Translations under genes and position numbers: made by a program
Part shown: positions 878 through 62,915 of the stretch, piece after piece
Numbering within the stretch: the stretch's first letter is position 1
How the letters are laid out: each line of letters starts with the position of its first letter
NCBI GenBank assembly: GCA_030867875.1
Contig: JAOWCC010000916.1
Coordinates: forward strand, 310,001 to 374,000
DNA: 64,000 nucleotides
From: Actinernus sp. WN-2022
Taxonomy: Eukaryota; Cnidaria; Anthozoa; Actiniaria; Actinernidae
Direction of reading: 5' to 3'
Notes under the pieces: generated by a model
The model's input: only the letters and a program-made list of their open reading frames with translations
Databases searched by the model: none
What the model was told of the DNA's origin: nothing

Positions 878-1102
878 ATGGAGAAGGAATTGACGAAGAC
901 GGCAACCGATGCAGTCAAAATCGTTGGACTCGCTGCTGGTATTGGGTGGATCGTAAAAAAGACTACCAAGGAATCTATGCTTAGTGATCCTTCTTCTTCC
1001 CTAGCGAATTACGCAAAGTGGACTGCCGTGATACTTGGTAGCTTATACGCAAAGGAATATCTTGAGAAACAACTTGAGAAAGAAAAAGAAAAGACCAAAT
1101 AA
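878..1102 (+). CDS. Polinton small protein 3, membrane-type
   Basis: 74-aa protein with two short hydrophobic segments (about residues 12-26 and 46-58) and a strongly charged, Lys/Glu-rich helical tail. It lies 37 bp after the previous stop and 2 bp before the next ATG, so it sits in a tight same-strand cluster. No family recognised. It may be an internal membrane or virion-associated protein; function is inferred only from context. Confidence 0.55.
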   Translation: MEKELTKTATDAVKIVGLAAGIGWIVKKTTKESMLSDPSSSLANYAKWTAVILGSLYAKEYLEKQLEKEKEKTK

Positions 1103-1104
1103 TA

Positions 1105-1536
1105 ATGGCACTAGCAGCAATTGGTATGTCGATTTTCGGCGCTGTTTTGAATGCGACGGCATTTACTGGTGGTGGCATACTAGCTAGAATGTTTGGAAAG
1201 GACGATGCTGTAGATAAGGAACGAGAGAGACACGATAGGGCCACCGAAAAACTAGAACGTGAAATGAAAGCGTATAGAATCAAACGTCAAAGCTTATATG
1301 ACTATGCACAAGAGCAGGAAGGTCTTGAACGCAAAGCACACAACGATCAAAGAGATACCAACGAAGCCTTAGTGCGATCCGATAAGTTACGTAAGGCGCT
1401 TAAACGTCTCAAAGAGATGAAAGAACCCCGCTTATCTGACTACTACAAACCCTCAAACAATCAGAAGACTGGCGAGTTGCTCTACGTTGGTGGTGGAATG
1501 CTAGGCGTTGGATACACTATTAGTAAATGGATATAG
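1105..1536 (+). CDS. Polinton small protein 4, coiled coil with hydrophobic ends
   Basis: 143-aa protein. The N-terminal 30 residues are hydrophobic and Gly-rich (AAIGMSIFGAVLNATAFTGG), residues about 33-115 are a long highly charged predicted coiled coil, and the C-terminal 17 residues are again Gly-rich and hydrophobic (LLYVGGGMLGVGYTIS). It starts 2 bp after the preceding stop. The layout suggests a membrane-tethered coiled coil, such as a minor structural protein. No homologue is recognised with certainty. Confidence 0.6.
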   Translation: MALAAIGMSIFGAVLNATAFTGGGILARMFGKDDAVDKERERHDRATEKLEREMKAYRIKRQSLYDYAQEQEGLERKAHNDQRDTNEALVRSDKLRKALKRLKEMKEPRLSDYYKPSNNQKTGELLYVGGGMLGVGYTISKWI

Positions 1537-1547
1537 ATACTACTACT

Positions 1548-1745
1548 AAGCTACTAGTAAGCTACTTAAGCTACTACTAAGCTACTAGTAAGTTGCCCTA
1601 AGCTACTAGTAAGTTACCCTAAGCTACTAGTAAGTTACCCTAAGCTACTAGTAAGTTACCCTAAGCTACTAGTAAGTTACCCTAAGCTACTAGTAAGTTA
1701 CCCTAAGCTACTAGTAAGTTACCCTAAGCTACTAGTAAGTTACTA
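1548..1745 (+). repeat. 21-bp tandem repeat between Polinton genes
   Basis: About nine head-to-tail copies of a 21-bp unit (consensus CTAAGCTACTAGTAAGTTACC). The first two or three copies are degenerate and the later ones identical. It separates the small-protein cluster from the integrase gene. The unit contains the palindrome ACTAGT and overlapping CTA/TAG words. It could be a replication or packaging-associated repeat or a simple minisatellite. Confidence 0.9.
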
Positions 1746-1752
1746 AAAAAAG

Positions 1753-1807
1753 AAAAAAGGAAGAATGAAGAGGGTCACGCAACGACTTTCTTCATTCTTC
1801 CTTTTTT
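1753..1807. terminator. 18-bp perfect stem with T-run upstream of integrase
   Basis: AAAAAAGGAAGAATGAAG (1753-1770) is exactly complementary to 1790-1807, with a 19-nt loop, and is followed by a T-run to 1815. It sits directly after the 21-bp repeat array and before the integrase start. It could end transcripts of the upstream cluster or act as a cis element. The sequence is certain; the role is inference. Confidence 0.6.
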
Positions 1808-1848
1808 TTTTTTTTCATCTGTTGAAGGTTAGAATGTATAGATGTATG

Positions 1849-2877
1849 ATGGATTCTAAACTTGCGAATATCTTCTATGGTCCTATGGGCTATTGGAAAG
1901 GTCACTCTGCAATTGGCAAGCTATCGGTAGCAGCGAAAGCATCAGAAGACGTGGCTAGGAGTTGGTTGGAAAAGCAATCTATGTGGCAAATATATCTACC
2001 ACCACCAAAACACATTCCACGACCACATTGGACTGTATCGAAACCAAATGAAGTCCACCAAGCTGATTTGATATTTCTACCACACGATCGGCCTGGACGT
2101 GGAAGGAAACTATATAAGTATGCATTAGTGGTAATCGATGTAGCTTCTCGATACAAAGAAGCCGAACCTTTGGCATCTAAAGATAGTGGTGAAGTTTCTG
2201 CGGCATTCGAACGAATCTATAAACGTAGTCCACTAGAATGGCCAAAGACTTTGCAAGTAGATCCTGGTAGAGAATTCATGGGACGCATGTCTGAAACGCT
2301 AGAACTACATGGTACGAAAGTTCAACGAGGTGAGGCTGGTAATCATAGAGCGCAAAGTTTTGTTGAAAGAGCAAATAGGACTCTAGCTGAGAGATTATTT
2401 GGCTATCAATATGCACAAGAGATGGTGCTTACTTCGGAAGGATCAGATGAGCGTAGTAGAGAATGGGTAATTCGTTTACCAATGGTTATCAAAGCCATGA
2501 ACAGTGAGGTGACTCGGTTGACTGGTAAAGAGCCTTCGAATTCTGTAGTGGCGCAACAAGTAGATCTGAAGACTCCTACGTATTCGCGCACCGTTGGATT
2601 GAGAGAAGAGCGTCTACCATTCGACGTTCTAGTTCGATATCTTTATGCACCAGGAGAATTGGAAGGAGGTGAAAAACGTAGAGCTACTGATCCTGTGTGG
2701 AGTTTGCAGATATACACCATTTCGCGAAGTGTAGTATCTTCGGGCCAGCCTGTGCTTTACTACCTTGCGAAGGAGAAGGACGCACCCAAACGTGGATTCG
2801 TTCGTGAAGAGCTACAAGTCGTTCCTAGGGATACAGAACTACCACCAAAAGGAATTCTGTTTGTACCTAGACGCTAA
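1849..2877 (+). CDS. Polinton DDE integrase (rve family)
   Basis: Retroviral-type integrase that would insert the element. The open frame extends to 1765, but that ATG lies inside the 18-bp hairpin, so I place the start at the ATG at 1849 (MDSKLANIFYG...), giving 342 aa. The catalytic core is visible: Asp73 in HQADLIF, Asp138 in QVDPGREF and Glu173 in FVERANRTLAE, with 34 residues between the last two (DDE, 35-type spacing). N-terminal residues 1-60 match the usual short HTH/zinc-type module in position only; no clear HHCC finger is seen. The C-terminal region (about 250-342) has the chromo-like basic end typical of Polinton integrases. The gene looks intact. It converges on the polymerase gene, with overlapping stops at 2874-2877. 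Confidence 0.88.
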   Translation: MDSKLANIFYGPMGYWKGHSAIGKLSVAAKASEDVARSWLEKQSMWQIYLPPPKHIPRPHWTVSKPNEVHQADLIFLPHDRPGRGRKLYKYALVVIDVASRYKEAEPLASKDSGEVSAAFERIYKRSPLEWPKTLQVDPGREFMGRMSETLELHGTKVQRGEAGNHRAQSFVERANRTLAERLFGYQYAQEMVLTSEGSDERSREWVIRLPMVIKAMNSEVTRLTGKEPSNSVVAQQVDLKTPTYSRTVGLREERLPFDVLVRYLYAPGELEGGEKRRATDPVWSLQIYTISRSVVSSGQPVLYYLAKEKDAPKRGFVREELQVVPRDTELPPKGILFVPRR

Positions 2878-5800
2878 ACAGCGTACTCTATTGGCTCGGT
2901 GTGGATTCCATCGGGAAGAACGCGTCTTTTGTCGTAGTAAGCCGATAGCCCAAGCTTCCGTTGTTTGTAGGTTGCTATGCCTTCTGGCGATAGTCGGAAG
3001 CCTCGGTTTTCCGCCATGTCGATATCACCCTGGAGGGCTGCTTTGAATCGATCCCACGTAATATCGTTGTGACGCCTAGACATACCTTTAGCGGAATACT
3101 TCTTGCTGCCACCCGTATCGACGTAGTAGGCTTTCGAGCATAGGGCAATGGCGCGCTGTCCTTCGAATTCGAGTTTGAAGAGTCCTGGCGTACGACTGCT
3201 CCATTCGTCCCAAGCTAGCCATTCATTCCTTTCGGCTTCGAAATCTTCTCGCAGTTCCGGTCTTACAACCTCATCGAGGCTATTTCCTGAGATGGCAATG
3301 TAGGCACTGTCTGTGTCCATCTGTATATATTCGAAATCATTGCGATCAATGTACTTGTCGATGAAGTCATAGTAGAACTCAAGCATACGCAGCTTTGCGA
3401 GCTGGTACACAGCGATACCTACTTGGAAAGGCCGTTTGATTCGGATCTGGTCTTTCCTACTCTCTAGTTCATATGCATCACCAATCTCTTCCAGGTCTTC
3501 GAACCAAACACTTCGCAATGCCTTGTCCACAACCTTCTCATCTTTTGTATAGGTGACCTTTGTTTGGCGTCCCAAGTCTTCGAGCAACTTTCCATAGGCG
3601 CTGTTTCCTAGTAGCTTGAACACATCTGCCAGCAAAGCCTCACCTTTGTCTTCATCTCCCAGGCGTCGCGCCTCAGTGACTTGGTCCACGAACCATCCGA
3701 AGATTTCTTTGGGTTCGTAATCTATCGTGCGGTAGACAGCAGTGATCACTGCGCCGTGATCTACATACCAAAGTAGAAGAGGAGCATAGAGTAGCAACTT
3801 CTTTCCAGAGAGACTTCCAACTAACTTCTTTTCCTCGCTGAGCTTTCTACCTGTCTTTGTGAGGTAGGCCAACATTTCTGGAGGGATTGCTTCTTTGGGG
3901 ATTTTCTTGTTGTAGAAGAAGGGTGGCATCTCCTCAAATTCCTTCCACAATTTCTTTGGTATCTCGATGTCTACTTCTGCATATCCAAACCACGTTCCAC
4001 CAAGTAGACATTCAACGAATCCTTCAGTGGCTGGACCTGGATCGTCATAGTGTACAACCTTTTCTTTTCCACAAGGCATTTCGAATTCCATGGTAGAAAG
4101 ATATAGGGCGTTGGCATCGTATCCAAGAATCTTACGACAAGTCTTAGTTCCTCCCTGATGACTACGAATCTTAGTCACTCCTGATTCGTGGAGTCTGGTG
4201 AACACTATGCTTGGACCTCCCACGACAGCGTCTTTCAGCATGTGGTAGGCTTCCTTACTTGGAGCGTACATCTCAGCTCCCCTTTCTACACTACCTCGAA
4301 GCAGGAACTGTAGTGAGACTCCTGGGATGGACACTGCGTCTTTCAGCATGTCTACTCCTTTCTCGTGATAGAAATCTTGCATCTTTTCGAGTGCCTCTAG
4401 GAATGGAACTACATCTAGGTTGTTGTAGTATCTTAGCCAGTCTGCAAAGGTTTCCATTCCTTTGTCGAGAAAGGTGTGCTTGCAGTCTTCGAACTCTTCC
4501 CTAGATAGTAGGTGTTCTCTTTTCAACTTCGAACCCCACTCTTGATAATCTGGTAATCCAACGTGATCCAACTTGTCGGGAGAGTCGAACCACTCATATG
4601 GGAAGAAACTCTTTTGCAACTCACATCCATATGCCTTGACCCACCTTTCGTAGGAAGTTCCAGGTCCAAGGTAGTTAATCACATCTAGGAAACGGAAATC
4701 TGGAGTCAATAGGAACATAGTGGAATTGGCTTTCTTTGCTACCAGGATCTTTGAACAGGTGTCGGCAATGGTTCCTACGAAGTGCTCCCTGATCAGATTG
4801 AGATCGTACCTGCCAGAGTTGAATCCCAACACTGGAACTTGATAGATCCATTCGTTGATCTTCGCTTGTTGACTCTTTGGTAGGGTGTAAAAGGAGAATT
4901 TGGGTGAATCAAGCCAAAACCATCTTTCCATAGCTCCTTGGATTGTCTCTGCTCTTTGCTGGAGTTCTTTGACAAAGGCTTTGATGAGTTCTTTTGGATT
5001 GCGTCGACAGATGTGGGTTGGCTTTCGATCGTACGTGTCGGCAATTGATACTGATATTGGGACATGGACGTTTTCGATGGTCAAGTGTTCTGTTGGTTGT
5101 CTTCCTTTCGTTGTATCGAGATAGGCTTCGAAATCGTAAACTATGAAGTGTGGGTAGACAGTTTGTGTTGGTGTGGGGACCGGTTTGTTTTTCTTCTTTG
5201 TGGAGCAGCCCCAAGCTTCCACTACTGTATAACCAGCTCCTTGTAGCTTTGCCGTTCTTTCACAGGTCTTGAGATAGAGCCTCCTTTCCCTAGGGAAGCA
5301 TTTCGGGCAGCCATGGAAATAGCATCCATGAAATTGAAAGATGGTTTTCGAAAGAGGTTCGTAGCCGTCGACCGGTGCTCCTTCGATCCAATGCTCTCCA
5401 CCATGCCCACAAGCTGCATGATGAATGTGTTGTCCAATCCTTTTGGTTTCGCGTTCCAACCAGCATAGAGCGACTTTGCTGGCTGTGCTCTCTGGCCAGA
5501 AGGCTTTTTCGTATGCCGACTGGGGTACTGTGATTACCTTTCCAGGGCAAACAATCTTCGTTTCGCCACGCCTGCAACGATCTGCATGGCGGTGGAGGTT
5601 CGAGGCTTTTGTGAACCGTTGCTTACAATCGTTGCATACGTAGACACTCCCTATCTTGTCGATGTTCTTGATGTAGAAGGCATGTTCTTCATACATCCCA
5701 ATCGTCATCGTATGCTTGTAGTGGGGTGCATGTCGCGTCAGATGCCAAGCGCCATCCTCCGTAGGTTCGTACACCCGAATACCGATTCCAAAGTGCAACT

Positions 5801-6464
5801 CGACTTCCTCCAGCTGGTCTAAGGAAGTTCTGGGAACGTCTTGTGTGGGCGCTGTCAGGCGATAGAAGTTCTGGGCAAGTTTTCGAGCTTTGACGCAACA
5901 CCTATCTACTCTTGCTCCTTCATGCATGGCAAGGCAGCGCCAAAGACATAGGTTGTCGCCATATTGATCAAGGGCAAGCATTCCTTTCTTAAGGCGAAGC
6001 CATTGGGGCAGTGGACCTGTTCCCAACAAAAGCTGACGATCGATCACGACTTTGACATCTACGTAGATCCAACGAACGAAGGCCCATTGGGTATTTGGTC
6101 GAGTGATGTTGTCGGGATTCAATCGAGCTGTCTCCTTGCTATTGATCCACTCTTCTGCATCTTCTAGGATGTTCACCCATGGAGAGCCTGGGACAGTCTT
6201 GGAGAATAGAATCACGCGTCCGTCATTGACATTTCGAATGCGATAGGTGTAGCTGTATCGCAGGTAAAAGCTGGTGGTTACCTTTGCAACTAACTTTTCC
6301 ATGATCCTAGGAGTCAAGTCTCCTGCCACACCTTGGAAGAAGCGCCATCGGATAGTACGGCGACCTATCTCCACTCCCTCGAGCATTCCATCTCTCTCCT
6401 CTAGAATAGCACCTGCCTCTCGAGCTAGACTCCGTGGAAGTGGTTCACTACGTGGTCTCACCAT
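2874..6464 (-). CDS. Polinton protein-primed family B DNA polymerase
   Basis: 1196-aa polymerase expected to replicate the element. Visible parts: a C2H2 zinc finger at about residues 273-295 (CNDCKQRF...HRHADRC), a Cys/His-rich segment at about 347-390 (HAACGHGG...HGCYFHGCPKC), the exonuclease Exo I motif YDFEAY near residue 440, polymerase motif A (YDANALYLS) near 784, motif B (KLLGNSAYGKL) near 956 and motif C (YIQMDTDSAY) near 1051. Motif order and length fit the Maverick/Polinton PolB family. The start at 6464 lies 9 bp downstream of the 71-bp repeats. The frame is open throughout with no visible break, so this element was active recently or is under constraint. Several long frames on the opposite strand are shadows. 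Confidence 0.93.
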   Translation of the reverse strand: MVRPRSEPLPRSLAREAGAILEERDGMLEGVEIGRRTIRWRFFQGVAGDLTPRIMEKLVAKVTTSFYLRYSYTYRIRNVNDGRVILFSKTVPGSPWVNILEDAEEWINSKETARLNPDNITRPNTQWAFVRWIYVDVKVVIDRQLLLGTGPLPQWLRLKKGMLALDQYGDNLCLWRCLAMHEGARVDRCCVKARKLAQNFYRLTAPTQDVPRTSLDQLEEVELHFGIGIRVYEPTEDGAWHLTRHAPHYKHTMTIGMYEEHAFYIKNIDKIGSVYVCNDCKQRFTKASNLHRHADRCRRGETKIVCPGKVITVPQSAYEKAFWPESTASKVALCWLERETKRIGQHIHHAACGHGGEHWIEGAPVDGYEPLSKTIFQFHGCYFHGCPKCFPRERRLYLKTCERTAKLQGAGYTVVEAWGCSTKKKNKPVPTPTQTVYPHFIVYDFEAYLDTTKGRQPTEHLTIENVHVPISVSIADTYDRKPTHICRRNPKELIKAFVKELQQRAETIQGAMERWFWLDSPKFSFYTLPKSQQAKINEWIYQVPVLGFNSGRYDLNLIREHFVGTIADTCSKILVAKKANSTMFLLTPDFRFLDVINYLGPGTSYERWVKAYGCELQKSFFPYEWFDSPDKLDHVGLPDYQEWGSKLKREHLLSREEFEDCKHTFLDKGMETFADWLRYYNNLDVVPFLEALEKMQDFYHEKGVDMLKDAVSIPGVSLQFLLRGSVERGAEMYAPSKEAYHMLKDAVVGGPSIVFTRLHESGVTKIRSHQGGTKTCRKILGYDANALYLSTMEFEMPCGKEKVVHYDDPGPATEGFVECLLGGTWFGYAEVDIEIPKKLWKEFEEMPPFFYNKKIPKEAIPPEMLAYLTKTGRKLSEEKKLVGSLSGKKLLLYAPLLLWYVDHGAVITAVYRTIDYEPKEIFGWFVDQVTEARRLGDEDKGEALLADVFKLLGNSAYGKLLEDLGRQTKVTYTKDEKVVDKALRSVWFEDLEEIGDAYELESRKDQIRIKRPFQVGIAVYQLAKLRMLEFYYDFIDKYIDRNDFEYIQMDTDSAYIAISGNSLDEVVRPELREDFEAERNEWLAWDEWSSRTPGLFKLEFEGQRAIALCSKAYYVDTGGSKKYSAKGMSRRHNDITWDRFKAALQGDIDMAENRGFRLSPEGIATYKQRKLGLSAYYDKRRVLPDGIHTEPIEYAV

Positions 6465-6472
6465 TCTCCCTT

Positions 6473-6685
6473 CGATATAACTATGTGTTAGGATAGCTTT
6501 AACAGGTACTCGAATTTGGATTTTATGTGTAAGGATGTTGCGGCGATATAACTATATGTAATTATATCTCTAATAGGATTATCAAGTTGGATTTTACGTA
6601 CAAGCAATCGATGTCGATATAACTATATGTAATCATATCTCTAATAGGATTATCAAGTTGGATTTTACGTACAAGAATGTCTAGT
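6473..6685. repeat. Three tandem 71-bp repeats upstream of polB
   Basis: The phrase CGATATAAC starts at 6473, 6544 and 6615, giving an exact 71-bp period. Copies 2 and 3 are nearly identical (shared TATCTCTAATAGGATTATCA) and copy 1 is diverged. The array sits between the polymerase start codon and the palindromic terminus. It is a good candidate for promoter or origin-proximal repeats. Confidence 0.9.
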
Positions 6686-12480: not shown

Positions 12481-13367
12481 ATGGCAGAACGTCAGAAAAG
12501 GTCATGGGGAAATTTTAAAAATGCGATGAAAGCCAAGAGGTGCAAACCAAATGGAAATGAAATCAAACTTGGAAAAGGAAGTATTGTTGAAAAGAAAGAG
12601 ATGGTGGTGCAGCGACTTAGCGCAGAGGTGTCAGGCAAAGCGCAAAAATATTCTCGAGTTGGAACACGAGAATTCGTCCCGTATGAAGAAGAGGAGCTAA
12701 CGATTCCAGGCATCAAAGCGGCATGTAAGAAGCATTTTCCTCTCAAAGGAATGGTGTGCGATGTCTTAGCTGGTGAGCAGGGTCCTTCGTGTCAATCAAC
12801 AAAGCACATTCCGGATGCAAAGGTAACCATGTGAGGTTTATGGAGCCATCCGGACGTGACGATTTAGCAGAAGCAGGATTTTCAGTTTCGAGCCTGAAAA
12901 TGCCCAGCCAGAGTTTACCACCACTTTACAGTGTTCCGGTGATGCCCTTACGTCGAGAAAAGCAAGATAACGACGCCAAGGCAACTAATTTTCCAAAGAG
13001 TTTATCTCTTTCAATGATGTTGAAACTTGGAAAAGTTGTAAACACCGATGCCTCTACCTCTGTGCTAGATGTTTACTCGTTTGACCTGGACAAGATGGCT
13101 TGGTCACTCGTACCCCAAAAGGTGCAATTTGTGATTGAAACCGAAGTTTGGGGATCTGGAGGGTTCAGGAATGCCTACAAGGCAACCAGTTGTACTCCAG
13201 GATTTAGCAGTGGCACATGGGTTGTTAAGAAGTTTCTTCCGGATGCCCGTAAAGCAATTGGTGATAACTTTGGTCAGTCAGTTGAAGAACACTGCAATAG
13301 GGTTGTCCAAATGCATTCTCTTGCAAATAACTTTGCTGACCAGCTGGTTTACACAAAAAACAGCTGA
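12481..13367 (+). pseudogene. Alpha-kinase-like retrocopy, frameshifted and truncated
   Basis: Intronless copy of an alpha-kinase family gene. The first frame (12481-12834) has a basic N-terminus (MAERQKRSWGNF...). The second (about 12825-13367) continues HVRFMEPSGRDDLAEAGF... and enters the kinase fold: MAWSLVPQKVQFVIETEVWGSGGFRNAY (Gly-rich part), WVVKKFLPDA (the Lys region) and VEEHCNRVVQMHSLANNFADQL. The frames join near 12820 if one base has been lost after GCAAAGGTAA. The catalytic C-terminal half with the zinc-binding Cys/His residues is missing: after a TGA at 13365 unrelated repeat-like DNA begins. Absence of introns suggests a retroposed copy or a single-exon gene. Family call rests on the conserved Gly loop, VVKK and QMH..A.NFA blocks. 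Confidence 0.75.
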
Positions 13368-24025: not shown

Positions 24026-26851
24026 CCACTCGAGTTGGTCAAGTTATTTAAGGCAAAGCTTCCATTCATAACAAATAGAGATTTTGACTTTGTTAGACGC
24101 GATAGGAATACAATCTCTAGCCCTTTGGTTAAAGAGGATCATGTTTGGAATTTCAAGCACGTAAAGCATTTGTGCGGAAATGGACGGTTGTATGTTAGAC
24201 TTAATGTCTGCAAGGACACACTTATTGAGGATGAAGAAGCCGTAGAGTCGCAGTCACCAAGTCCAGCTACTGGTAGTGCCGCTGAGACACCAGCTCCTCC
24301 TGCTACAAGGCTGGACCTAGCGGGTCACATGTTCTTAGTGGCTGCCACTACACTCCCCAAGTCCACTACATCAGAAGCTGCTTCTAGCACTGCAATTAGT
24401 GATGATGACGAGGATGAACGACTAACACCTTCAGGGGCGATTAATTCACCATTAGATCAACAGAAAGTGAATAACCTCAAGGTTGATCAAGAGGATGTAG
24501 TCATGGATGTTTACAGTTTCTATAAAAGTCCTGACTTTGACCCTACGATTCCTATTTTTGTGTCCTTAAAGGGCCAGCCAGCTATTGACACCGGTGGCGT
24601 GTTACGACATGTGTTTAGTGACGTTTTTTATGGCATGGCAAACAATGAAGGAATTAAGAATGTTTTTAATGGAGATAAAAACAACAAAGTACCTGTATTC
24701 AGCAATGAACTGGTTGTGAATGGATTGTTTGAAGTGTTGGGTAAAATGATAGCCCACAGCCTAATCCAGTCAGGCCCAGGATTCCCATACCTGTCTCCTA
24801 CCATTTACTGGTATTTGGCAACTGGTGATCTACAGATTGCAATCCAGAAAGCATCATGCTCAGATGTGGATGACATTGAACTTGCTGAGTACATCAAGAA
24901 GGTAAGTTTATTGTTAGTTGTATATGTTGTGGTTCGGTTTTGTGCCTGGTTCAAATTTTCTGTTCTATTGTTTGATGCATTATAATTTGCATAGAAAAGA
25001 ACAAAAAAAGGGAAATTTGAACCAGGAACAAAACTGAACCACAACTGAAACAACAATATAAAATACCTGCTTTGTGACCTCATAAGGGCAACAATTGCTC
25101 ATGGCTTATCAGGACCCCTTCTGGAGTTTGTTTTGTATTAAATTACTGTGCTTATACAAGTACTTCATATTTAGGTGTTTTGGATGAGCTTGTATACCCT
25201 GGTGTTTTGAAAGGAGCTGATAAAAATAACTTCAGATTGTAATAATATAAGCACAAATTAGTATTTGTTTCCTATTGATTTCAAATTCAATATTTCTGGT
25301 GAATACATTTCATTATAGCATTACATTTACCTTATGTAGAGGTAGTGTGTGTGAGAGGTGACAGTACAGTGTCCCCCGATTAGTGCACAAGCGCTAGAAG
25401 ACATGGACACTTAAATAAACAGTTATTTATTTATTTACTACTGTTTCTCATGTATGTATATGAAATCTGTTATATCCAAGTTAATGAGAGATTATTGATC
25501 AATCATTTCCTATACTTCAGATTACAGAGGCACCAGCAAATGAGCTAAATGCTATTGCCTGTGAATCTGGCTGGGTCAGCCTGATGTCTGAAAACTGGAG
25601 AAAGTAGAATACTTACAGTAAGTAGAAAATTGAAACTAATTATACAGTAACAATGTAGAAAGAGCAATTAATAGATGATAGTATATGCACTTTCATTAGT
25701 TAATGTGTACTTGTGTAGTATTGATTTGGAAGACATGGGTCTATTTCTATTTATCCAAACATTACAACTACCTGTTTGTGTCTTTGTTCTGCAAAGTGCC
25801 ACATGATTTCAACCGTTTTTAGTTCTCCCAACATCATGCATGTTTAAATAGAGGCTAAGAAAAGTAGTTACATTGCATGATTTCCACATTGCAGTTGGAA
25901 GTCAGTTAAAGTGTTGATTAACTGTGAAAAGAAGCAGTTTTGTTAAAACATGCCAAAGCTGACTGATTACCGGCAGTCAAGCAGTATGCCCCCTCCCCAG
26001 GTTTATCAGAAATGTTACTGTAAATTATATCATGCTGATACAAGTCCTTGATTGGTTGTTGTAGGTTGATAACAAGCTTGATGTCCTCCAGTCTTTAATG
26101 CTTCACAACATTCTAGTGAAGAAAAAGGGAATTCTGGATCAATTCAGGAAGGGGCTCTCAATCTTTGGTTTGTTGGATGAAATAACAAATAAGCCAGAAA
26201 TGTTCGAAGAGTTCTTTGTCCACAAAGGCATAGTAAGTAATGATTATGTGGCCAGTAGCCTATATTTCCCTGCCTCTGAAGACAAGGATGCTCAAAGGGT
26301 GTTCCAGATGCTCCATACTTTTATCAGGAATTGTAAACCAGATGGCCTTGATGATTTCCTGAGGTTTGTCACTGGTACAAGCGGCTCAGCAAAAAGCATC
26401 CTCCCACGACGTATAGCAGTCTCTTGTGAGAGTACAAACAGCATTTTTGCATCAACTTGCTTAAAGGGGCTGTGTCACGGTAAGACTTTACATTCGCTTT
26501 TCCGGGCCGGAAAGAGCTATTTCCACCGAATTTGATATGAACTGACGAACCTCTCGGCCATGTGGGATGCTTAAAATGAAAGCAAATATGCAAAAATGAC
26601 TAACAAACAGTGTATATAAACAGTCTCCAGGAAAAATATTGAGAATCCTTTCAATCAAGAATTGAGGGAGGGAAGTTTAACTGTTTGTATCCAATTAACA
26701 GCCACTAAACGAGCGATTACTCGATACATGCGCAGTACCATGACATAGCCCCTTTAATGGAGCTAAAGTTGCCAAACTATTTCAGAAACTATGCTGAGTT
26801 TGAGGCAGCCATGAATTCAGTGATTGGTGGCAAATCATTCACAACAGGATG
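24026..26851 (+). pseudogene. HECT-type E3 ubiquitin ligase gene, disrupted
   Basis: Three exons of a HECT ligase. Exon to 24901 (donor GTAAGT): KLPFITNRDFDFVRRDRN... , an S/T/D/E-rich linker, then the N-lobe (FVSLKGQPAIDTGGVLRHVF...VLGKMIAHSLIQSGPGFPYLSPTIYWYLATGD). Exon 25521-25617: ITEAPANEL...MSENW; the frame hits TAG at 25605 before the donor GTAAGT at 25618, consistent with one extra base. Exon 26065-26460 and on: VDNKLDVLQSLMLHNILVKKKGILDQF...FLRFVTGTS...STC, then MELKLPNYFRNYAEFEAAMNSVIGGKSF..TG to the stop near 26851. Cys at 26458-26460 matches the HECT active site (STC/HTCF). A MITE splits this last exon straight after that codon. Upstream the frame is continuous with a Penelope GIY-YIG domain, so the true 5' end is unclear. 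Confidence 0.8.
26461..26757. mobile_element. 289-bp TTAA MITE inside HECT exon
   Basis: TTAA 26461-26464 and TTAA 26754-26757 flank ends AGGGGCTGTGTCACGGTA and TACCATGACATAGCCCCT (16 of 18 paired). Non-coding, piggyBac-type target duplication. In-frame stops truncate the HECT protein about 28 codons after the active-site Cys. Removing the MITE plus one TTAA restores the normal HECT C-terminus. Confidence 0.9.
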
Positions 26852-41939: not shown

Positions 41940-42205
41940 TAGCTTGTAGGCGAATTGAGGACAACTTAAAGGAAAGAAAACAATCGAAAGTTACATGTTT
42001 TGAAACAACTTTCTCGGCACGCGTTTGCAAAAGATGTTGTGATTTGTGACACCCTGGTCAATTGTATTGAGTTACAAGAAACGTCATTTCCTGTACAGCA
42101 CAACAGGAAATGATCTGTGCAAACACCACGTATCAAACACGTGAATTTGACAGCTCCTTGCCCGACTTGGTTGTGTTGTGATCTATACTTTCCCCAGCTG
42201 ATGAA

Positions 42206-43871
42206 ATGAATCACACTTTATTCCACTTTGGTTTTAAGAAGGAGGTAGAAACAAAAAGTGGTAGACTCTTCGATGTTTCTGCAGGGCTGTCAAAGACTAT
42301 TCAGTTGCCTGATAAGCCAGTAAAGTGTGACTTTTGCAATAATTCGTACGCTGGTAAGAAATACCTCGATACTCATGTGCGATTCAAGCATCCATCTCAG
42401 TACTCAAAGTTCAGCCAAAGCAGTTCAGGAACTACGATTTTATCGAAAGATATTGACAAAAGTGCCAGTCAAACTGCTCATCAGCAAGTTGCGGACAAGA
42501 GGCAAGAAACATGCGATTTGACGGAGCTAGAGGAAATTGATTCTGGCAACAACAAAACTAACAACCGACGAGGGGCAGATCAGAGGAAATCTTACACCAT
42601 GGATTTCAAAATAAAAACTCTCGATCTTCTAGATGCCATGAAAGAGCTTAAGACCAAAAAGCTCTGGAAAAAGGTTGCAGAAAGAAGAGGAATTAGCAAG
42701 TCACTAGTTGTCAAATGGAACAAGGACCGAATAAAGATCCGAGGACAGCTAGCTCTCAACAAGACAAAGAAGAACAAAGGCGCAGCAAGATCTACAAGAC
42801 AAAGAAGACAACTCGTGTCCGGTAAAGTCAAAGGCGAGAAGTTTCCACTAGCAGCTCAACGTGTTGTTGTAGAGTTCAAGCTCCTAAGAGCAAAAGGGTG
42901 TAAGATTTCTAAGCTTTGGCTAAAAAAGAAAATGAAGGAAAAGGTTGAAGCATGTTATGGAAAAGAGGAAGCCGAGAAATTTAAAGCGAGCAACAACTGG
43001 TTCCAAAGGTTCAAGAAGCGCCATAACATTGCATTCAGTAGAAGGTCTAACAAAAAAAAGAGCTCAGCAAGTGATGGGAGGGAGACAATTCAACGTTTCC
43101 ATAGGAACCTAAGGAAGGCCCTGAAAACAAGAAGACGACGAAATAATGCTGGGTTGGATAGCAAACGTGGACGCTGGTTACCACAGAACAGATATAATAT
43201 CGATCAAGTGCCCCTCCCATTTGTTATTGATCAGGATAAAACGTATGAAGTCAAAGGGAGTGAGCAGGTGTGGGTTTCCCAGCCCTCAAGTGGCTTGGAC
43301 AAGAGGCAAGCTACGTTGCAGCTGTGTATTCGTGCCGAAGGAGAACAGAATGTCAAGCCTGCCATTGTTTTCAGGGGTAAAGGGAATGTACGTGCTGATG
43401 AGAAAGCAGAGTATGATGAGGGAGTTGATGTTTATTTTCAAAGCTGTGCATGGATGGACAGTGAAGTAAACATGCAATGGGTAGCAAAAACACTTGTTCC
43501 AGGTGTTAGTGAGTCTGTGGAAGAGAAAGTGATTTTTGCAGATAATGTAACATTTCAGCAGGATAAGCAGTTTCATGATGCATGTAGACATGAGCTGAAT
43601 GCTATTGTTTACCTACTGCCTGCAAACCATACTGATAAGATCCAACCTATAGATGCTGGGTTTGGTAAAATGTATAAGACAAAAAACGGAGAGGAGATGG
43701 ACAAGTGGCTTGAGAAGGAGGATCCTCATGACAAAGTGGGCTGGTGCCGCTTGGAGGGAACTGGTCAAGGATCAGACTTTCATTAAGAAACTTTTTCAGA
43801 AGACAGAATGCCTAATTACCATTGATGGGACTGATGATGATATGGTCAGACCACAAGGACTTGATGACTAA
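42206..43871 (+). pseudogene. pogo-like DDE transposase, one frameshift
   Basis: N-terminal C2H2 finger (CDFCNNSYAGKKYLDTHVRFKH, about residues 35-57), basic linker, HTH DNA-binding region (KTLDLLDAMKELKTKK..AERRGISKSLVVKWNKDR and NWFQRFKKRHNI), then the DDE core: Asp333 (YNIDQVPLPF), Asp446 (FADNVTFQ) and Asp483 (QPIDAGFGKMY), DDD with 36 residues between the last two. The first frame ends at 43786. The conserved continuation (RRILMTKWAGAAWRELVKDQTFIKKLF...DDDMVRPQGLDDY) is in another frame (to 43871), so one indel lies near 43722. All three catalytic Asp are kept, so it is recently dead or a one-base assembly error. Confidence 0.85.
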
Positions 43872-44872: not shown

Positions 44873-45855
44873 TAGCCTGGGAAACCAGCCGACTCTTATC
44901 GCTCCCCACTCGCGAAAGAGACGTCTGGGAAGTGAGGCAGAAAATGCCATACTGATGACGTAGCAGATAGCCGTTTCACAATGCATAAATTAGTTGCAAT
45001 TCTCAGAAGCCGAATGCGAACAATGGCTGCTCGTTTGCTTGGCAGTGGATCACCGTCACGAACAACTCATGAAATTCAAGCCTATGTAGCGTGTGCCGGT
45101 GCTGTTGTTGGCTCCTTTGCAGACTGAGTTCTTTCAGCGGCTAGTAAAGCGAAATGTCGTACTGTCAAAACATTTACAAGAAAGGTACTGACTACTGTCA
45201 TAGTTGTTTATAATTTCATATCAGTAAACCTACATACACTGAGCTATCACAAAACACTGGATGAGTTGTTGTTGCGGCGGATAAATCGTTCAGACAGTGA
45301 ATCTGGGCTATGAATAAACATAATTACATGTAAGTGTGCTATGAATCACGAACCAAGTGTGATATGAATCAATCACCCAAGCAAACGGGCAGCCTCAGTA
45401 GTATACGTGAAAATAACCGCTGCATTCTGTAGCTAACCTCTTCGGCTACTGACCTGAAAAAAGAGCTGGCTTGAAAAGTGGCCTGCTGTTCTGTGTGTAG
45501 GTTTTGAAATTATAAACAACTATTATGTTTTGACAGTCGTAGGACAAATTCTCTTGACCGGGCCGAGCCGCTGAAAGAACGAAGCAAGCGAGCTACCAAC
45601 GCACGCTAAATATATAGGATTGAATTTCATGGTTGTTCATGACGGTGATCCACTGCCAAGCAAACGAGCAGCCTCGGTAGTTATATTCCTTGAAAATAAC
45701 TCTGTTGTTCGCATTCGGCTTCTGAGAATTGCAACTAATTTATGCATTGTGAAACGGCTATCTGCCACGTCATCAGTATGGCATTTTCTGCCTCACTTCC
45801 CAGACGTCTCTTTCGCGAGTGGGGAGCGATAAGAGTCGGCTGGTTTCCCAGGCTA
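44873..45855. mobile_element. 983-bp Mutator-like foldback element, 9-bp TSD
   Basis: TAGCCTGGGAAACCAGCCGA at the left is mirrored exactly at the right (TCGGCTGGTTTCCCAGGCTA). The arms stay complementary for over 200 bp (e.g. ACGTCTGGGAAGTGAGGCAG, TTGCTTGGCAGTGGATCACC) and weaker pairing continues inward. Flanking CAACATCAA occurs at 44864-44872 and 45856-45864, a perfect 9-bp duplication. Long TIRs plus a 9-bp TSD suggest a Mutator-like non-autonomous element. No coding. Confidence 0.9.
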
Positions 45856-48210: not shown

Positions 48211-48303
48211 GGAAAACATTTTACTGTATGCAGTAAACACATGTGGCACATCCTAACGTATGTGGTTCGTACGGTGTGAAAAACGTTTGTCAGGGACTGT
48301 ACG

Positions 48304-48551
48304 CTACCACATTTTGAGGTTCTCCCCTCCATGATCTGTCCTTAACCAAAGTGACACATCATACACACTGGTGGCAGAATCAAAATGGTACAGCACAGTG
48401 TGCGACCTGTTGTTGTCTGATGCTTTCAGAAAGGATACTACTCTGCTGAACCCATCTGTAGCTCCATACACAACGATACGCCAATTGATCAGCTTGTGGT
48501 TGCCGTCTACATGCCAGCGGTAATTAGGACAGGGCACGGAATACACCCTAT
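48304..48551 (-). pseudogene. IS3EU-like transposase fragment
   Basis: Minus strand: YSVPCPNYRWHVDGNHKLIN, WRIVVYGATDGFSRVVSFLKASDNN..., LRTDHGGENLKMW. It aligns without gaps to the transposase at 57819-59541 (YSVPTPNSLWHIDGHHKLIR, RTGYGTENV) from just before the first catalytic Asp to just after the second. Here the second Asp (RTDHGGEN) is intact. The intron that interrupts the W-H-I-D site at 58523-58748 is absent here. Truncated on both sides. Confidence 0.8.
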
Positions 48552-57496: not shown

Positions 57497-57502
57497 CCTA
57501 TA

Positions 57503-57791
57503 TATGGCGCGCCGATCCGGACAAAAATACTTATCTTGAAATATATACAACTTGTTGTGAAATTATAGAACTTGATTGAAAAATATACAACTAGTTAGGA
57601 TAAATATACGACTTGTTTGTAAAATATACGACTTGTTTGTGATATATACGACTAGTTTAAAAAATATCTACGGCTTGTTTGAAAATATACGACTTGTGTC
57701 AAAATATACGACTTGTGTCAAAATATAATACTTAGCCCGCGATGATTCGGTCAGCAGACACACTTCGCATGGAGGAAGCCCGGGTACTAGT
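57503..57791 (+). repeat. Left TIR with subterminal repeats
   Basis: After the GC-rich tip (contains GGCGCGCC) come about nine copies of a ~20-bp motif (AAAATATACGACTTGTTTGT and variants), then the unique part ending GGAGGAAGCCCGGGTACTAG. The repeats are likely transposase-binding sites. Confidence 0.9.
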
Positions 57792-57818
57792 CGCTTTCGC
57801 TTCCCATGCACACACAAA

Positions 57819-59541
57819 ATGGCGTCTTCTAACGATCTGGCTGTATTTGTTGACATTTTAAGTGATGGAAAAATAATATATCAAGAGATTCAAAGAAAAC
57901 TATTCATTGCCGATGACGAAGAAGCTAATTTACTTCAAAATCGTTGCAAACAATTTATCACTGCACTCCTTATTGTCTCAAGGCCACTAGAATCATATCC
58001 GCACATTATGGATGATGTACTACAAGCAGTTGTGGAATTCCAGAAGATTAATAACCGAATAGAAGAGCGATTTCATGAATTACAGCAAACTAACACACAG
58101 TATGTGTGCCCTACGGAGTCTCTGTGCCAAAGAAAAGGTCGTCCAAGCCTTGTAATTCCCAAAGAACAGCTAGAAGGCTTGCGATCTCTTCATTTCTCGT
58201 GGACTGCTATTGCTAAAATGCTGGGTGTGTCAGAGAAAACATTGAAACGCAGAAGAGAAGCTTACAACATTCCTTCATCGTTTGAGCTTTTTTCTGAAAT
58301 AAGCGAAGACGAAATTGACCTTTTTGTGAAATTTGATTTGGGTATATCGCCGAATTCAGGTGAAAGAATGATGATGGGTTGGTTTCGAGGAAGAGGACTT
58401 CGTATTCAGAGATGGAGGCTTAGGGAATCAATGATGATGGTAGATCCAGTCGGTAGAGAACTCAGAAGAAAAACAGTAACTAGAAGAAGAGTTTACTCTG
58501 TACCAACACCTAATTCTTTGTGGTAAGAACATACATGTATTTGCTAAATCAATTAATTGAAGCACATACCAGAAGTGGGCTTTAAGCTTCATGTGTGGGG
58601 TACCACCTTTTTTATTCATGAACACCAGATTTTCAAAATTACAAATTAGTTATATGTACTTAATTTTAGCCATACACACAATTTATTTATTTTTATAAAG
58701 CAATTATGACAACATAAGCCAATGATATCTTAATGTTTTATCTTTCAGGCACATTGATGGACACCACAAACTGATACGATGGCGAATTGTTATCCATGGT
58801 GCCATTGATGGTTATTCAAGAACTGTTGTTTTTCTTAAGGCTTCAACGAATAATGAAGCATCTACGGTTCTTGAACTCTTTTTAAAAGCTACTGAGATTT
58901 ACCATTTTCCACGAAGAGTGAGAACAGGCTATGGTACTGAAAATGTTGCAATAGCAAGGGAGATGCTGACTAGATTTGGAGTAGATTCCAATCCAATGTT
59001 AACTGGACAATCATTGCATAATCAACGAATTGAAAGGCTTTGGCGTGATGTGTACAATTATGTAGTAATGTACTACAAAAACATTTTCTATTATTTGGAG
59101 AAAACACAGGTGTTAGATCCCTGTAATGAAATTGATGTGTATTCATTGCATTATGTGTACCTACCACAGCTAAACAACACAATAGACCAGTTTGTAATGC
59201 AGTGGAATAATCATCCAGTTTCAGGTGAGGGTGGATATTCGCCTCTTCAGATGTGGACAGAGGGATTTTACAATAATGCACTATCTGATTATACTACTGT
59301 CAAAGATGTATTGGGCCCAAACATTGCTGACAACAATTATGGGATTGATGATAATGCACCATTACCTGAACTACAAACTGTTAACCATGTTGAAGTGCCC
59401 AAATCTACCATTCAACTTTCTGAAAATGAGTTCTCAACTTTATTGGATACAGTCAACCCACTTTCTGATGATGATGAACATGTCATTTCTCTGTTTTCAA
59501 ATGCAAAAAGAGTTTTACAAGGTATTTTATCCAACCGATAA
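57819..59541 (+). CDS. IS3EU-like DDE transposase (catalytic Asp lost)
   Basis: Two exons, 57819-58522 and 58749-59541 (donor GTAAGA, acceptor TTTCAG, join within the Trp codon of LWHID), 498 aa, open throughout. An N-terminal helical region is followed by HTH-type DNA binding (GRPSLVIPKEQLEGLRS...AKMLGVSEKTLKRRREAYNI, about residues 108-155), the conserved block SGERMMMGWFRGRGLRIQR..RESMMMVDP, then the rve/DDE core: Asp238 (LWHIDGHHKL), position 295 in RTGYGTENV and Glu330 (HNQRIERLWRD). The second acidic residue should be Asp (RTDHGGEN in the 48.3-kb copy) but codon 58927-58929 is GGC, Gly. Spacing 34 residues to Glu330. Start ATG 28 bp inside the TIR. Otherwise intact, so the protein may still bind the ends. 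Confidence 0.9.
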
Positions 59542-59811
59542 TTATATCCAACCACATAAGAAAAAAATTCAAAAGAAAGTTCAAAATATTGGTACTCAAT
59601 GTAACTGTAACAAAGGTTTATATAAGAAAAGTATTTTGTAATAAAATACATGTAATAAGATTGACATAACTGTAACAAATGTAACTTTAAAATTTAACTA
59701 TAAAATTCAATTCTATGCTATGAAAAACAACTAAATGTTGTGAAAGACTTCAATGGGAAAACATGACAATATGCTGCTACATTTCAAAGAGTCCTATTGT
59801 AAGTTTCACAG
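59542..59811. other. Convergent intergenic spacer inside the transposon
   Basis: AT-rich, with AATAAAATAC near 59640 that could serve as a polyadenylation signal for the transposase. No coding. Confidence 0.4.
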
Positions 59812-62584
59812 CTAACATTTTCCAAAGCCAACTCCATTTAATATTGCATGATGGATCAGGTTGGTGAACTCTGAACAATCATCATGACCTCTAGGCAGAC
59901 TGAGGGTCAATGAACAGGTTGATGACCACGGCAGCCTCCTGACATTCTTTTCCATGTCGTAGAATTCAATTGATATCGGGTTATCAAAGCCAAGAGGTGG
60001 AACACGGTCAGCTCCTGTTATGAATATCAGCAAGTCCTCAATAGACAAGCCGTCAATCTCACCATCCTCCAAGTCCTGTAGGAAGACTTCAAAGCAGTAC
60101 ATGGTCTTCTCTTCCTTCTCTCTGTCGTTTGAACCACTTTCAGAATATGCAATAAAATAAAGCTTTCTAAAACTTGCGTGAGTGAGCTTTTCACTGCTTT
60201 CTGAAAGAACAGCATTGAAAATGTCAGGATTGTTTAGTACCGTATCACCAAATCCTCCAATGAAATTCAGGCCATTTTTGAATTGTTCAATCTCGGCATG
60301 TACTGAAAATAGCAGTGCTTGTTTGAGAAGGCAGTGTTGGATTTCACTTTTCTTGGAGATATCAGAAGTGTAGATTTGGGTATATCCATAATTTGCAATC
60401 AATTCAGCTTTAGAATTCTTAATTGCAATAAACTCATCATTGGTGGAACAGGACTCCAGATCTTTGAGAACTTTCTTGATCTCCTCGTCAGTTACAACAT
60501 TTATTGCCTGATCATGGTTAAATGGAAGGTCTTTGATGACCAAATATGCATCTGAAGAAAGGGACTTGAACCCAGTGGGCCTCCCTGGAGAATACTCCAA
60601 GACACTAGTTTTCCTGCCATTTCATATTTTTTTGAATGCAGTAATTGAAGATCATGAGCAAACCATTTACCTTGAAGAAAAAAGTACAAAATGAGTCTTG
60701 AATCAACAAGCTATGAAGTGTAAGTCAGACAAAAACTTACTAACATTTCCTACGACATAATGAAATTTCGAAGTAAAACCTCCATAATTTTGAAAGAATT
60801 TGAGTGCACAATGCTACTCATAGACCTTATACATGTGAACTAATTTTCAATATCAGAAATGTGGGATCTTTCTAGTGAAAACAGCCTCTACCATGAGACC
60901 ATGTCAAGATTAACATATTTTGATTTTTTTAAATAGTTTAAGATGAAAGCTCAAGATGGTATCTACAGTAGATAAACTATTAAAATCATCCAGATATGTT
61001 AATTAATCTTGACATGATCTTTCGGGTGAAAGAGGCTGTTTTCTTCAGAAATATCCCACTGATATTAAAAATCAGCTTGTGTGCATAAGGTCTATTGGCT
61101 TATGACTCATAAAACATATTTTTTTTACCTTCAAAAACACCAAGGTTTTTCAAAGACAACATGAGGAGACGGAAATATTCACGTCTAGGTCCACCTGCAT
61201 CCACTCCATCTTCACCTGAATAATAATAATTCAGGTTAGGTATGAATATGCAAACTATGTATAAAAATAAAAATAAACTGTTACTAAGGTTTTCTTACCA
61301 GAGAATGTGATATGAACTGGTTTTAAATAGGAAAATTTACATCTTTGGACTGCTCTGAGGGTACTTGACAGCATATTTTTTCTGTTAACTACAATGTTAA
61401 CATAGTTGTATGTTGTCCAGGTTATCACTGTTGTTGTCCAGGTTATCACTGTTGTTGTCCAGGTTATCACTGTTGTTGTCCAGGTTATCACTGTTGTTGT
61501 CCAGGTTATCATCTATGAATCTTTTTATGACATCCAATGCTTTCACTTCAAAGGAACTGTGACTTTTCAGTTTGATCCCCAAGGCTTGCATGAATAGCTG
61601 CAAGGATTTCAGGGTCATCGTCATCGTCATCGTGATCCAGTATATTGATATACTTGTCATAGCCTGTCAGAGTGTGTGGCTGTTGGCTTTTTTCTTTCTT
61701 TTTAAAGTCTGGTTACTGCAGCTGGACTTTGCAGGAAAGTGGTCAGTGACGACAGATTCTTTACTTGTAGTAGCACAAAGTGAGTCATCCAGTTTCTTGA
61801 TCTTTGGTTTAGGGTGAGTTTCTTCAGAATCACTTGTGGAATTTGTAAAAAAAGGCTGCATCAAACATTCATCATCAGTGCTTTCATCGTTCTGAGCTCC
61901 TTTATTGCCACCATACCACCTCTTCAAACTTGGATCAAAAACTTCAGAAGAAGCCCTAATGTAGATTGGACCTTGTTTTGAAAGATATTTAACAACTTTT
62001 CCATTGAAAGGACCAGACTTAACTTGAATAATTTTACTTCCAATAGCTCTGACAAACTCGTACTTAGGCTCGTCGATGGCTTTAAGCTTTCGCTCAAACA
62101 AATCGTTGAACTTTATTCTAATTTCTTCCTCTGGTATGTCATCAGCGATTTCGACTGCACTCACTGCGTAATATTTCGTATAGAGAGATTCTCGAAAAAG
62201 CCCTCGTGGCACTTCTTCAATATCGGGAGATGGAAGCAGAATCACATCCTTCAATACAGATTTAGACTGACTGCTGGTATTCGTCCGCACTAACTTTCTC
62301 TTTCCACGGGATGTTGCGCCTCCTTTTTGTTTAACCTTTGTGTAATCGATCTTCGAGTTAAAAGAACTGGTCGTCGACGAAGAGGATGACGAAGACGACG
62401 AAGCTTGGCCTCGGATACTAGGAAATAGCTCTCTCAAAGCAGCTTCTCTGTTTTGTGGTGACTCACTTTCTTGACTCTGTGGACCAGCGTTTATACTGTT
62501 GTTTTCTCTTAGAGAATTCACAGCCTCAACAAGTTTGTTCAGTATTTGTTCTGCATGCAGGAGACATAAATACAGGACACACAA
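59812..62584 (-). CDS. Transposon-borne UIM-HECT E3 ubiquitin ligase (frameshifted copy)
   Basis: Minus-strand passenger gene. Exon 61667-62584: Ser-rich and basic N-terminal part, then IKFNDLFERKLKAIDEPKYEF..IIQVKSGPFNGKVVKYLSKQGPIYIRA. Next, in a frame shifted at an A-run near 61690, DHDDDDDDPEILAAIHASLGDQ (61602-61660) has the UIM pattern L..AI..SL. After another shift near 61560 comes VKALDVIKRFIDDNLDNN and a 7-residue repeat. Exon 61129-61215: GEDGVDAGGPRREYFRLLML, the HECT N-lobe start. Exon 59812-60670: GKWFAHDLQLL..GKLVSWSILQGG, a 2-bp insertion near 60590, then the rest of HECT with ITGADRVPPLGF and active-site Cys in SSTCSLTLSLP (codon 59914-59916, minus). It transfers ubiquitin to unknown targets (family role). 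Related to G2E3-like HECT proteins. Breaks may be real decay or assembly errors in homopolymers. Confidence 0.75.
61408..61512 (-). repeat. 21-bp minisatellite coding NLDNNSD repeat
   Basis: Five near-identical copies of GTTGTTGTCCAGGTTATCACT (+ strand). In the minus-strand gene it gives a 7-residue acidic, Asn-rich repeat between the UIM-type helix and the HECT domain. Confidence 0.9.
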
Positions 62585-62619
62585 AGAAGGTGTGATGTGA
62601 CCAATTTGGCGGGAAAATT

Positions 62620-62909
62620 ACTAGTACCCGGGCTTCCTCCATGCGAAGTTTGTCTGCTGACCGAATCATCGCGGGCTAAGTATTATATTTTGACACAAGT
62701 CGTATATTTTACAAACAAGTCGTATATTTTCAAACAAGCCGTAGATATTTTTTAAACTAGTCGTATATTTCACAAACAAGTCGTATATTTTACAAACAAG
62801 TCGTATATTTATCCTAACTAGTTGTATATTTTTCAATCAAGTTCTATAATTTCACAACAAGTTGTATATATTTCAAGATAAGTATTTTTGTCCGGATCGG
62901 CGCGCCATA
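62620..62909 (-). repeat. Right TIR with subterminal repeats
   Basis: Inverse of 57503-57791, with the same tip and array of ACAAGTCGTATATTTT motifs. One motif region differs by a small indel. Confidence 0.9.
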
Positions 62910-62915
62910 CCTATA

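What the first reader, a model, noticed from the sequence alone, without database searches (positions are those of the whole stretch)
57503..62909. Complete IS3EU-like transposon with a ubiquitin-ligase (UIM + HECT) passenger gene
Perfect 6-bp TSD, ~290-bp TIRs, a two-exon DDE transposase and, antisense and convergent, a multi-exon gene with a UIM-type helix and HECT N- and C-lobes including the active-site Cys. HECT genes related to G2E3 are massively multicopy in some animal genomes; carriage inside a cut-and-paste element would give a mechanism for that spread and for a transposon to act on host protein turnover. Element borders are seen directly; domain names follow family knowledge; the functional link is inference.
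Basis: partly seen in the sequence, partly recalled or inferred. Interest (0 to 1): 0.88.

Follow-up and report, generated by a model that had tools for sequence, protein, structure and literature searches.

The report
Jumping gene carrying a ubiquitin ligase
A jumping gene with both ends intact, in what is likely a cnidarian genome, carries between its ends and facing its transposase a second gene for a HECT ubiquitin ligase (an enzyme family that tags other proteins); both genes are damaged in this copy, but the ligase is predicted to have helped such elements act on host proteins.

Summary
The anatomy is real. A 5,407-bp element (57503-62909) has TATGG..CCATA ends, ~290-bp inverted repeats 98% alike and a perfect 6-bp target duplication (CCTATA), as published for IS3EU/GingerRoot transposons. 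Inside are a two-exon transposase (498 aa, Pfam rva_4, E 1e-77) and, convergent on the other strand, a predicted three-exon gene with a conserved N-terminal region, a UIM-like helix and both HECT lobes with the active-site Cys. Each gene starts within about 60 bp of an inverted repeat, so the ligase gene belongs to the element's body. New: this copy is likely dead. Gly replaces the second catalytic Asp (Asp in 25 of 25 aligned relatives), and the HECT frame is broken at about five places, yet keeps 76 of 80 columns invariant in 11 relatives, so decay looks recent. One HECT relative has TIR-like ~20-nt repeats directly upstream (suggestive only). Whether sibling copies carry both genes remains untested: the host-genome search did not complete (28 tries). 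The papers I saw name OTU/Ulp1 proteases, alpha-kinase and TET dioxygenase as transposon cargo, no HECT ligase. Verdict: a new cargo variant of a known transposon kind; the benefit to the element is inference.

The parts
57497..57502 (.). target site duplication, left copy (CCTATA)
   Evidence: read directly
57503..57791 (+). left terminal inverted repeat, begins TATGGCGCGCC
   Evidence: 98.3% identical to 62620-62909 reversed
57541..57723 (+). array of eight to nine ~20-bp units inside the TIR (likely transposase binding sites; inferred)
   Evidence: nine copies (D2), eight starts
57819..58522 (+). transposase exon 1 (N-terminal region with HTH-like helix)
   Evidence: HTH_23 E 6.6e-4, below Pfam's own cut-off
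58523..58748 (+). transposase intron, GT..AG
58749..59541 (+). transposase exon 2, DDE core; first Asp 58756-58758, Gly at second Asp 58927-58929, Glu 59032-59034
   Evidence: PF24764 E 1.1e-77; alignment columns; codons checked
61299..62554 (-). HECT gene, predicted exon 1: conserved N-terminal region, UIM-like helix (61575-61625), tandem 21-bp units (61411-61515), start of HECT N-lobe; start codon out of frame and three internal frame changes
   Evidence: tblastn of relatives; alignment; exon end read by eye
61129..61215 (-). HECT gene, predicted exon 2 (part of the N-lobe)
   Evidence: tblastn; splice sites read by eye
59812..60670 (-). HECT gene, predicted exon 3: rest of N-lobe and C-lobe; one frame change at about 60576-60606; active-site Cys codon 59914-59916
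   Evidence: PF00632 E 5.6e-13
60820..61095 (.). palindromic stretch (MITE-like by eye) inside the second intron of the HECT gene
   Evidence: inverted repeats I10, I13, I19; self-match
62620..62909 (-). right terminal inverted repeat
62910..62915 (.). target site duplication, right copy (CCTATA)
   Evidence: read directly

Best explanation
This is an IS3EU-type DNA transposon of 5.4 kb with both ends intact that carries, convergent with its transposase gene, a HECT ubiquitin-ligase gene (with a UIM-like helix) starting close to the opposite inverted repeat, and the ligase is likely an element-borne cargo gene that would help the element by tagging host silencing or repair proteins, or the transposase itself, for turnover. 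Shown: the two ends, the target duplication, both genes, their order, the ligase's active-site Cys, and the damage in this copy. Inferred: the transposase binds the ~20-bp subterminal units, cuts at the TA ends and joins with a 6-bp stagger; each TIR serves as promoter of the gene next to it; the UIM-like helix holds ubiquitin while the HECT Cys takes ubiquitin from an E2 and passes it to a target chosen by the N-terminal region. This copy itself is likely unable to transpose on its own or to make the ligase; it is likely a recently dead member of a lineage whose ligase gene was kept under selection until recently.
Against: Only one HECT-bearing copy was seen. No second copy in the rest of the window plus 220 kb of the same contig. 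Three IS3EU-like loci of a sponge-symbiont MAG (L001-L003; sponge DNA by my inference) show no HECT on contigs of 3.4-4.2 kb, and a HECT profile found nothing in that assembly, which holds 9 transposase matches on 5 contigs (the tool warns that this empty answer lacks a positive control). The gene is broken in this copy, and the active-site Cys is Arg in one of 13 relatives. The periodicity statistic is not specific: a wider scan with 20 shuffles per segment flagged 28 of 145 proteins at various lags, and no transposase relative (0 of 120) shares the repeat's peptide motifs. No expression, no substrate, no selection test on DNA.
Confidence: 0.53

Rival explanations
1. One-off capture: a host HECT gene (or a copy of it) was trapped between the TIRs of this one transposon copy and served no purpose for the element.
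For: Single copy seen; gene broken; no sibling in about 278 kb searched; sponge-MAG relatives without HECT nearby.
Against: The gene fills one half of the element, its start about 60 bp from one TIR as the transposase's is 27 bp from the other; 76 of 80 invariant columns kept, so the gene was constrained until recently, though that could also stem from life as a host gene before capture; one relative with TIR-like repeats upstream (suggestive only).
Confidence: 0.28
2. Neutral vehicle: HECT genes of this clade are an old multicopy family carried by several kinds of mobile elements, with no effect on the transposon's fitness.
For: Clusters of relatives hold up to 31 and 53 member sequences; a G2E3 blastx match was reported in an unclassified repetitive element of Cottus (PMC5638112, passage); the window holds a second, different HECT-like frame at 24.4-26.5 kb (by eye; no Pfam HECT match at E<=0.01).
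Against: Cluster member counts do not show gene copies in one genome; constraint on conserved residues speaks for use.
Confidence: 0.2
3. Assembly error: the frame changes and the Gly are sequencing mistakes and the copy is intact.
For: Residues are nearly all conserved around the breaks.
Against: The transposase frame of 498 codons has no indel, and a 1,225-codon frame stays open at 2874-6551 in the same window, so indel errors are not common here; the TIR arms differ at about 1.7%, which fits a little neutral ageing.
Confidence: 0.12

Closest known systems
[quoted passage not shown] passages)
   Same: TA..TA termini, 6-bp TSD, integrase-like DDE transposase, cargo gene in opposite orientation to the transposase (as alpha-kinase in fungal TET-bearing IS3EU)
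   Different: cargo named in the passages seen is alpha-kinase and TET/JBP dioxygenase; here a HECT E3 ligase; TIRs of ~290 bp with a ~20-bp unit array
Ginger1 transposons with OTU or Ulp1 protease domains (PMC2836005; passages)
   Same: DNA transposon of animals incl. Hydra with a ubiquitin/SUMO-pathway activity; its authors suggest a role in transposition or repair
   Different: there removal of ubiquitin/SUMO and a domain fused to the transposase; here ubiquitin ligation and a separate convergent gene; no OTU/Ulp1 match in this transposase
HECT E3 ligases, nearest solved by sequence AREL1 (6jx5)
   Same: bilobal HECT with catalytic Cys in a TC motif
   Different: 20% identity in the match of relative P0122's model; own N-terminal region and UIM-like helix, encoded in a transposon
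TET-bearing fungal transposons (IS3EU, Kyakuja, Zisupton etc.; PMC12730594, passages)
   Same: host-type regulatory enzyme captured by DNA transposons, thought to counter silencing
   Different: acts on DNA methylation; here on proteins

Membership tests
IS3EU/GingerRoot | termini TA..TA (TAYGG..CCRTA in the rust-fungus families) | tested here: met
   TATGG..CCATA against PMC10045372 and PMC12730594
IS3EU/GingerRoot | target site duplication usually 6 bp | tested here: met
   CCTATA on both sides
IS3EU/GingerRoot | transposase belongs to the IS3EU/GingerRoot clade | tested here: inconclusive
   PF24764 rva_4 E 1.1e-77 and 2,683 relatives, but no Repbase IS3EU sequence was at hand for a tree
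DDE transposase, active | intact D, D, E triad | tested here: not met
   D238 and E330 present, Gly at 295 where 25 of 25 aligned relatives (of 120 listed) have Asp; applies to this copy, not to the family
HECT E3 ubiquitin ligase | HECT domain, both lobes | tested here: met
   PF00632; fold of relative P0122; the frame is broken in this copy
HECT E3 ubiquitin ligase | active-site Cys | tested here: met
   Cys at 59914-59916; Cys in 12 of 13 aligned relatives, Arg in one; aligned with AREL1
HECT E3 ubiquitin ligase | ubiquitin transfer activity | not testable with these tools
   needs biochemistry
UIM protein | ubiquitin-interacting motif | tested here: inconclusive
   Pfam UIM at E<=5 in 6 of 15 relatives, best 0.02; none in the window piece
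G2E3 | PHD/RING-type fingers N-terminal to HECT (feature recalled, from no call) | tested here: not met
   no such Pfam match at E<=1 on the joined window pieces
Ginger1 | OTU or Ulp1 domain at the transposase C-terminus (all but one listed family) | tested here: not met
   no such Pfam match at E<=1 in the transposase

The most novel reading that the evidence does not exclude
A lineage of animal IS3EU transposons has made a HECT E3 ligase its second standard gene, uses it to destroy host silencing or repair factors (the mirror image of the deubiquitinase-bearing Ginger elements), and by jumping has seeded the many HECT genes with the same N-terminal region seen across invertebrates.
Probability: 0.32. 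Interest if true: 0.85.

Novelty: new variant of a known kind. Interest (0 to 1): 0.6.

Why it matters
Few transposons are known to carry a host-type regulatory enzyme. Proteases that remove ubiquitin or SUMO, a kinase and a DNA demethylase are described as cargo; a ubiquitin ligase would give a mobile element the power to choose host proteins for destruction, and would give a route by which lineage-specific HECT families multiply. The element is small and well bounded, so the idea can be tested in any genome that holds siblings.

Tried and rejected
Searches for sibling loci: transposase profile in viral contigs gave 23 pattern hits and no relative; HECT profile in viral contigs 6 pattern hits and no relative; transposase profile in genome contigs gave 3 loci, all on contigs of one sponge-symbiont MAG; no HECT there. 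No TIR pair was recognised on these short contigs; the one inverted pair around the transposase of L002 is an AGCT simple repeat. PDB by sequence for the transposase gave only weak integrase matches (best E 0.009), useful because first and second Asp fall in line with HTLV-2 integrase. The third protein search, with the HECT profile, listed 13 proteins; both HECT searches scored only the 7,993 candidates sharing most words, so the family may be larger than listed. The structure job on the window's own C-terminal 253 residues (mean pLDDT 80.3) was not searched further.

Papers: nine searches listed no title or abstract start that reports a HECT gene in a DNA transposon. The listings were capped in several (e.g. 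15 of 57, 15 of 43, 10 of 18, 5 of 59,944). I opened five papers, passages only: PMC10045372, PMC12730594 and PMC2836005 hold the word HECT 0 times; PMC5638112 names a G2E3 match in an unclassified repeat; PMC6027436 names a mimivirus HECT protein, set aside as unrelated. 33 of the 35 papers with the word IS3EU were not opened. The original GingerRoot paper did not turn up; Repbase Reports were not searched, so a listing there cannot be excluded.

Considered and rejected: that TIRs flank two unrelated things by chance (TSD abuts both ends and both genes lie inside); that the HECT gene is intact.
Full report
Observation. The element runs from 57503 to 62909 (5,407 bp). Its arms 57503-57791 and 62620-62909 align at 98.3% over 290 columns. 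They begin TATGGCGCGCC, and CCTATA stands directly outside both ends (57497-57502, 62910-62915). The arms contain an array of ~20-bp units: nine copies, eight starts 19-41 bp apart. The pair is the best-scoring inverted match in the 64-kb window.

Transposase. Exons 57819-58522 and 58749-59541 join over a GT..AG intron to 498 aa. Pfam gives PF24764 rva_4 at 1.1e-77 and rve at 1.8e-6, the latter below Pfam's own cut-off. The protein search found 2,683 relatives at E<=0.001, 120 listed; named ones include octocorals, Hydractinia, Nematostella, fish, amphioxus, acorn worm and ribbon worm. The best named match is Paramuricea clavata (55% over 68%), so the host is likely a cnidarian; this is inference, no record names it. 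In an alignment with 25 of the 120 listed relatives the window keeps 33 of 35 columns that are invariant in those relatives (at least 80% occupied); the two misses are I to L at 376 and Asp to Gly at 295. Position 295 is the second catalytic Asp by alignment with HTLV-2 integrase. First Asp and Glu are kept; 34 residues lie between the second Asp position and the Glu. This copy's transposase is therefore likely inactive.

Damage. Compared with relatives the reading frame changes at about 61700, 61570, 61407-61500 and 60576-60606, and the start codon beside 62554 is out of frame relative to P0121. Yet 76 of 80 columns invariant in 11 of the 18 relatives are kept; the misses are the start Met, one F to Y and two L to I. 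The TIR arms differ by about 1.7%. Together this fits a gene that was constrained and then decayed only recently (inference). Indel errors of the assembly are unlikely: the transposase and a 1,225-codon frame elsewhere in the window are open.

Is the ligase a standing part of the element? For: both genes start close to a TIR (27 and about 60 bp); their 3' ends converge near 59.5-59.8 kb; and P0123, a HECT relative on a 594-kb ENA contig whose organism is not shown, has a 108-residue read-through upstream of its likely start with ~20-nt periodicity (0.708 at lag 20, also 38 and 58-59; highest of 500 shuffles 0.66), as a TIR array would give. That statistic is not specific: in a scan of 145 proteins with few shuffles 28 were flagged, and 0 of 120 transposase relatives share the peptide motifs of P0123's repeat. 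Against: no sibling copy in 220 kb plus the rest of the window; three loci of a sponge-symbiont MAG with IS3EU-like transposases show no HECT on short contigs, and none was found in that assembly, without a positive control. The decisive test, other copies in the 1.39-Gb host assembly, was asked 28 times and never answered.

Mechanism. Most likely, in an intact element each TIR drives one gene; the transposase binds the TIR units and moves the element with a 6-bp stagger; the ligase takes ubiquitin from an E2 onto its Cys and passes it to a host target chosen by its N-terminal region, with the UIM-like helix holding ubiquitin. What it gains the element (relief from silencing, repair of the donor site, control of transposase dose) is untested. 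The Ginger paper proposed ubiquitin/SUMO involvement in transposition from OTU/Ulp1 domains (PMC2836005, passages); the study of TET-bearing transposons (PMC12730594, passages) shows fungal IS3EU with alpha-kinase and TET genes, alpha-kinase opposite to the transposase, the same layout as here.

Novelty. In nine paper searches, seen as listings (capped in several) plus passages of five papers, no report of a HECT ligase inside a DNA transposon was found; Repbase Reports were not searched, so a listing there cannot be excluded. New variant of a known kind.

Noticed in passing
window 48259-48549, minus strand: relic of a second IS3EU-type transposase (47-58% identical to P0022, P0047, P0066, P0080), 9 kb from the element.
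   Followed up: partly
window 24400-26535, plus strand: a second HECT-like frame of another clade (read by eye; not hit by this clade's relatives at 1e-4, no Pfam HECT match at 0.01), after a GIY-YIG piece (PF01541 E 0.0029, below cut-off) that by eye looks Penelope-like.
   Followed up: partly
window 12777-13367, plus strand: open frame that by eye resembles an alpha-kinase (no Pfam match at E<=0.01); of interest because alpha-kinase is a published IS3EU cargo.
   Followed up: no
window 1078-6551: integrase-like and DNA polymerase-like frames of a Polinton/Maverick type element (by eye); observed only.
   Followed up: no
window 44873-45855: inverted pair, arms of 301 and 331 bp, about 80% alike, MITE-like by eye.
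   Followed up: no
window 61411-61515: about five 21-bp units inside the HECT gene coding for NLDNNSD repeats; absent from the 11 aligned relatives.
   Followed up: no
window 42182-43786, plus strand: Tc5/pogo-type transposase (PF03184 9.5e-13, PF03221 4.3e-7).
   Followed up: no
L002:260-395: array of ~23-bp tandem units upstream of the sponge-MAG transposase (by eye), reminiscent of the TIR array here.
   Followed up: no
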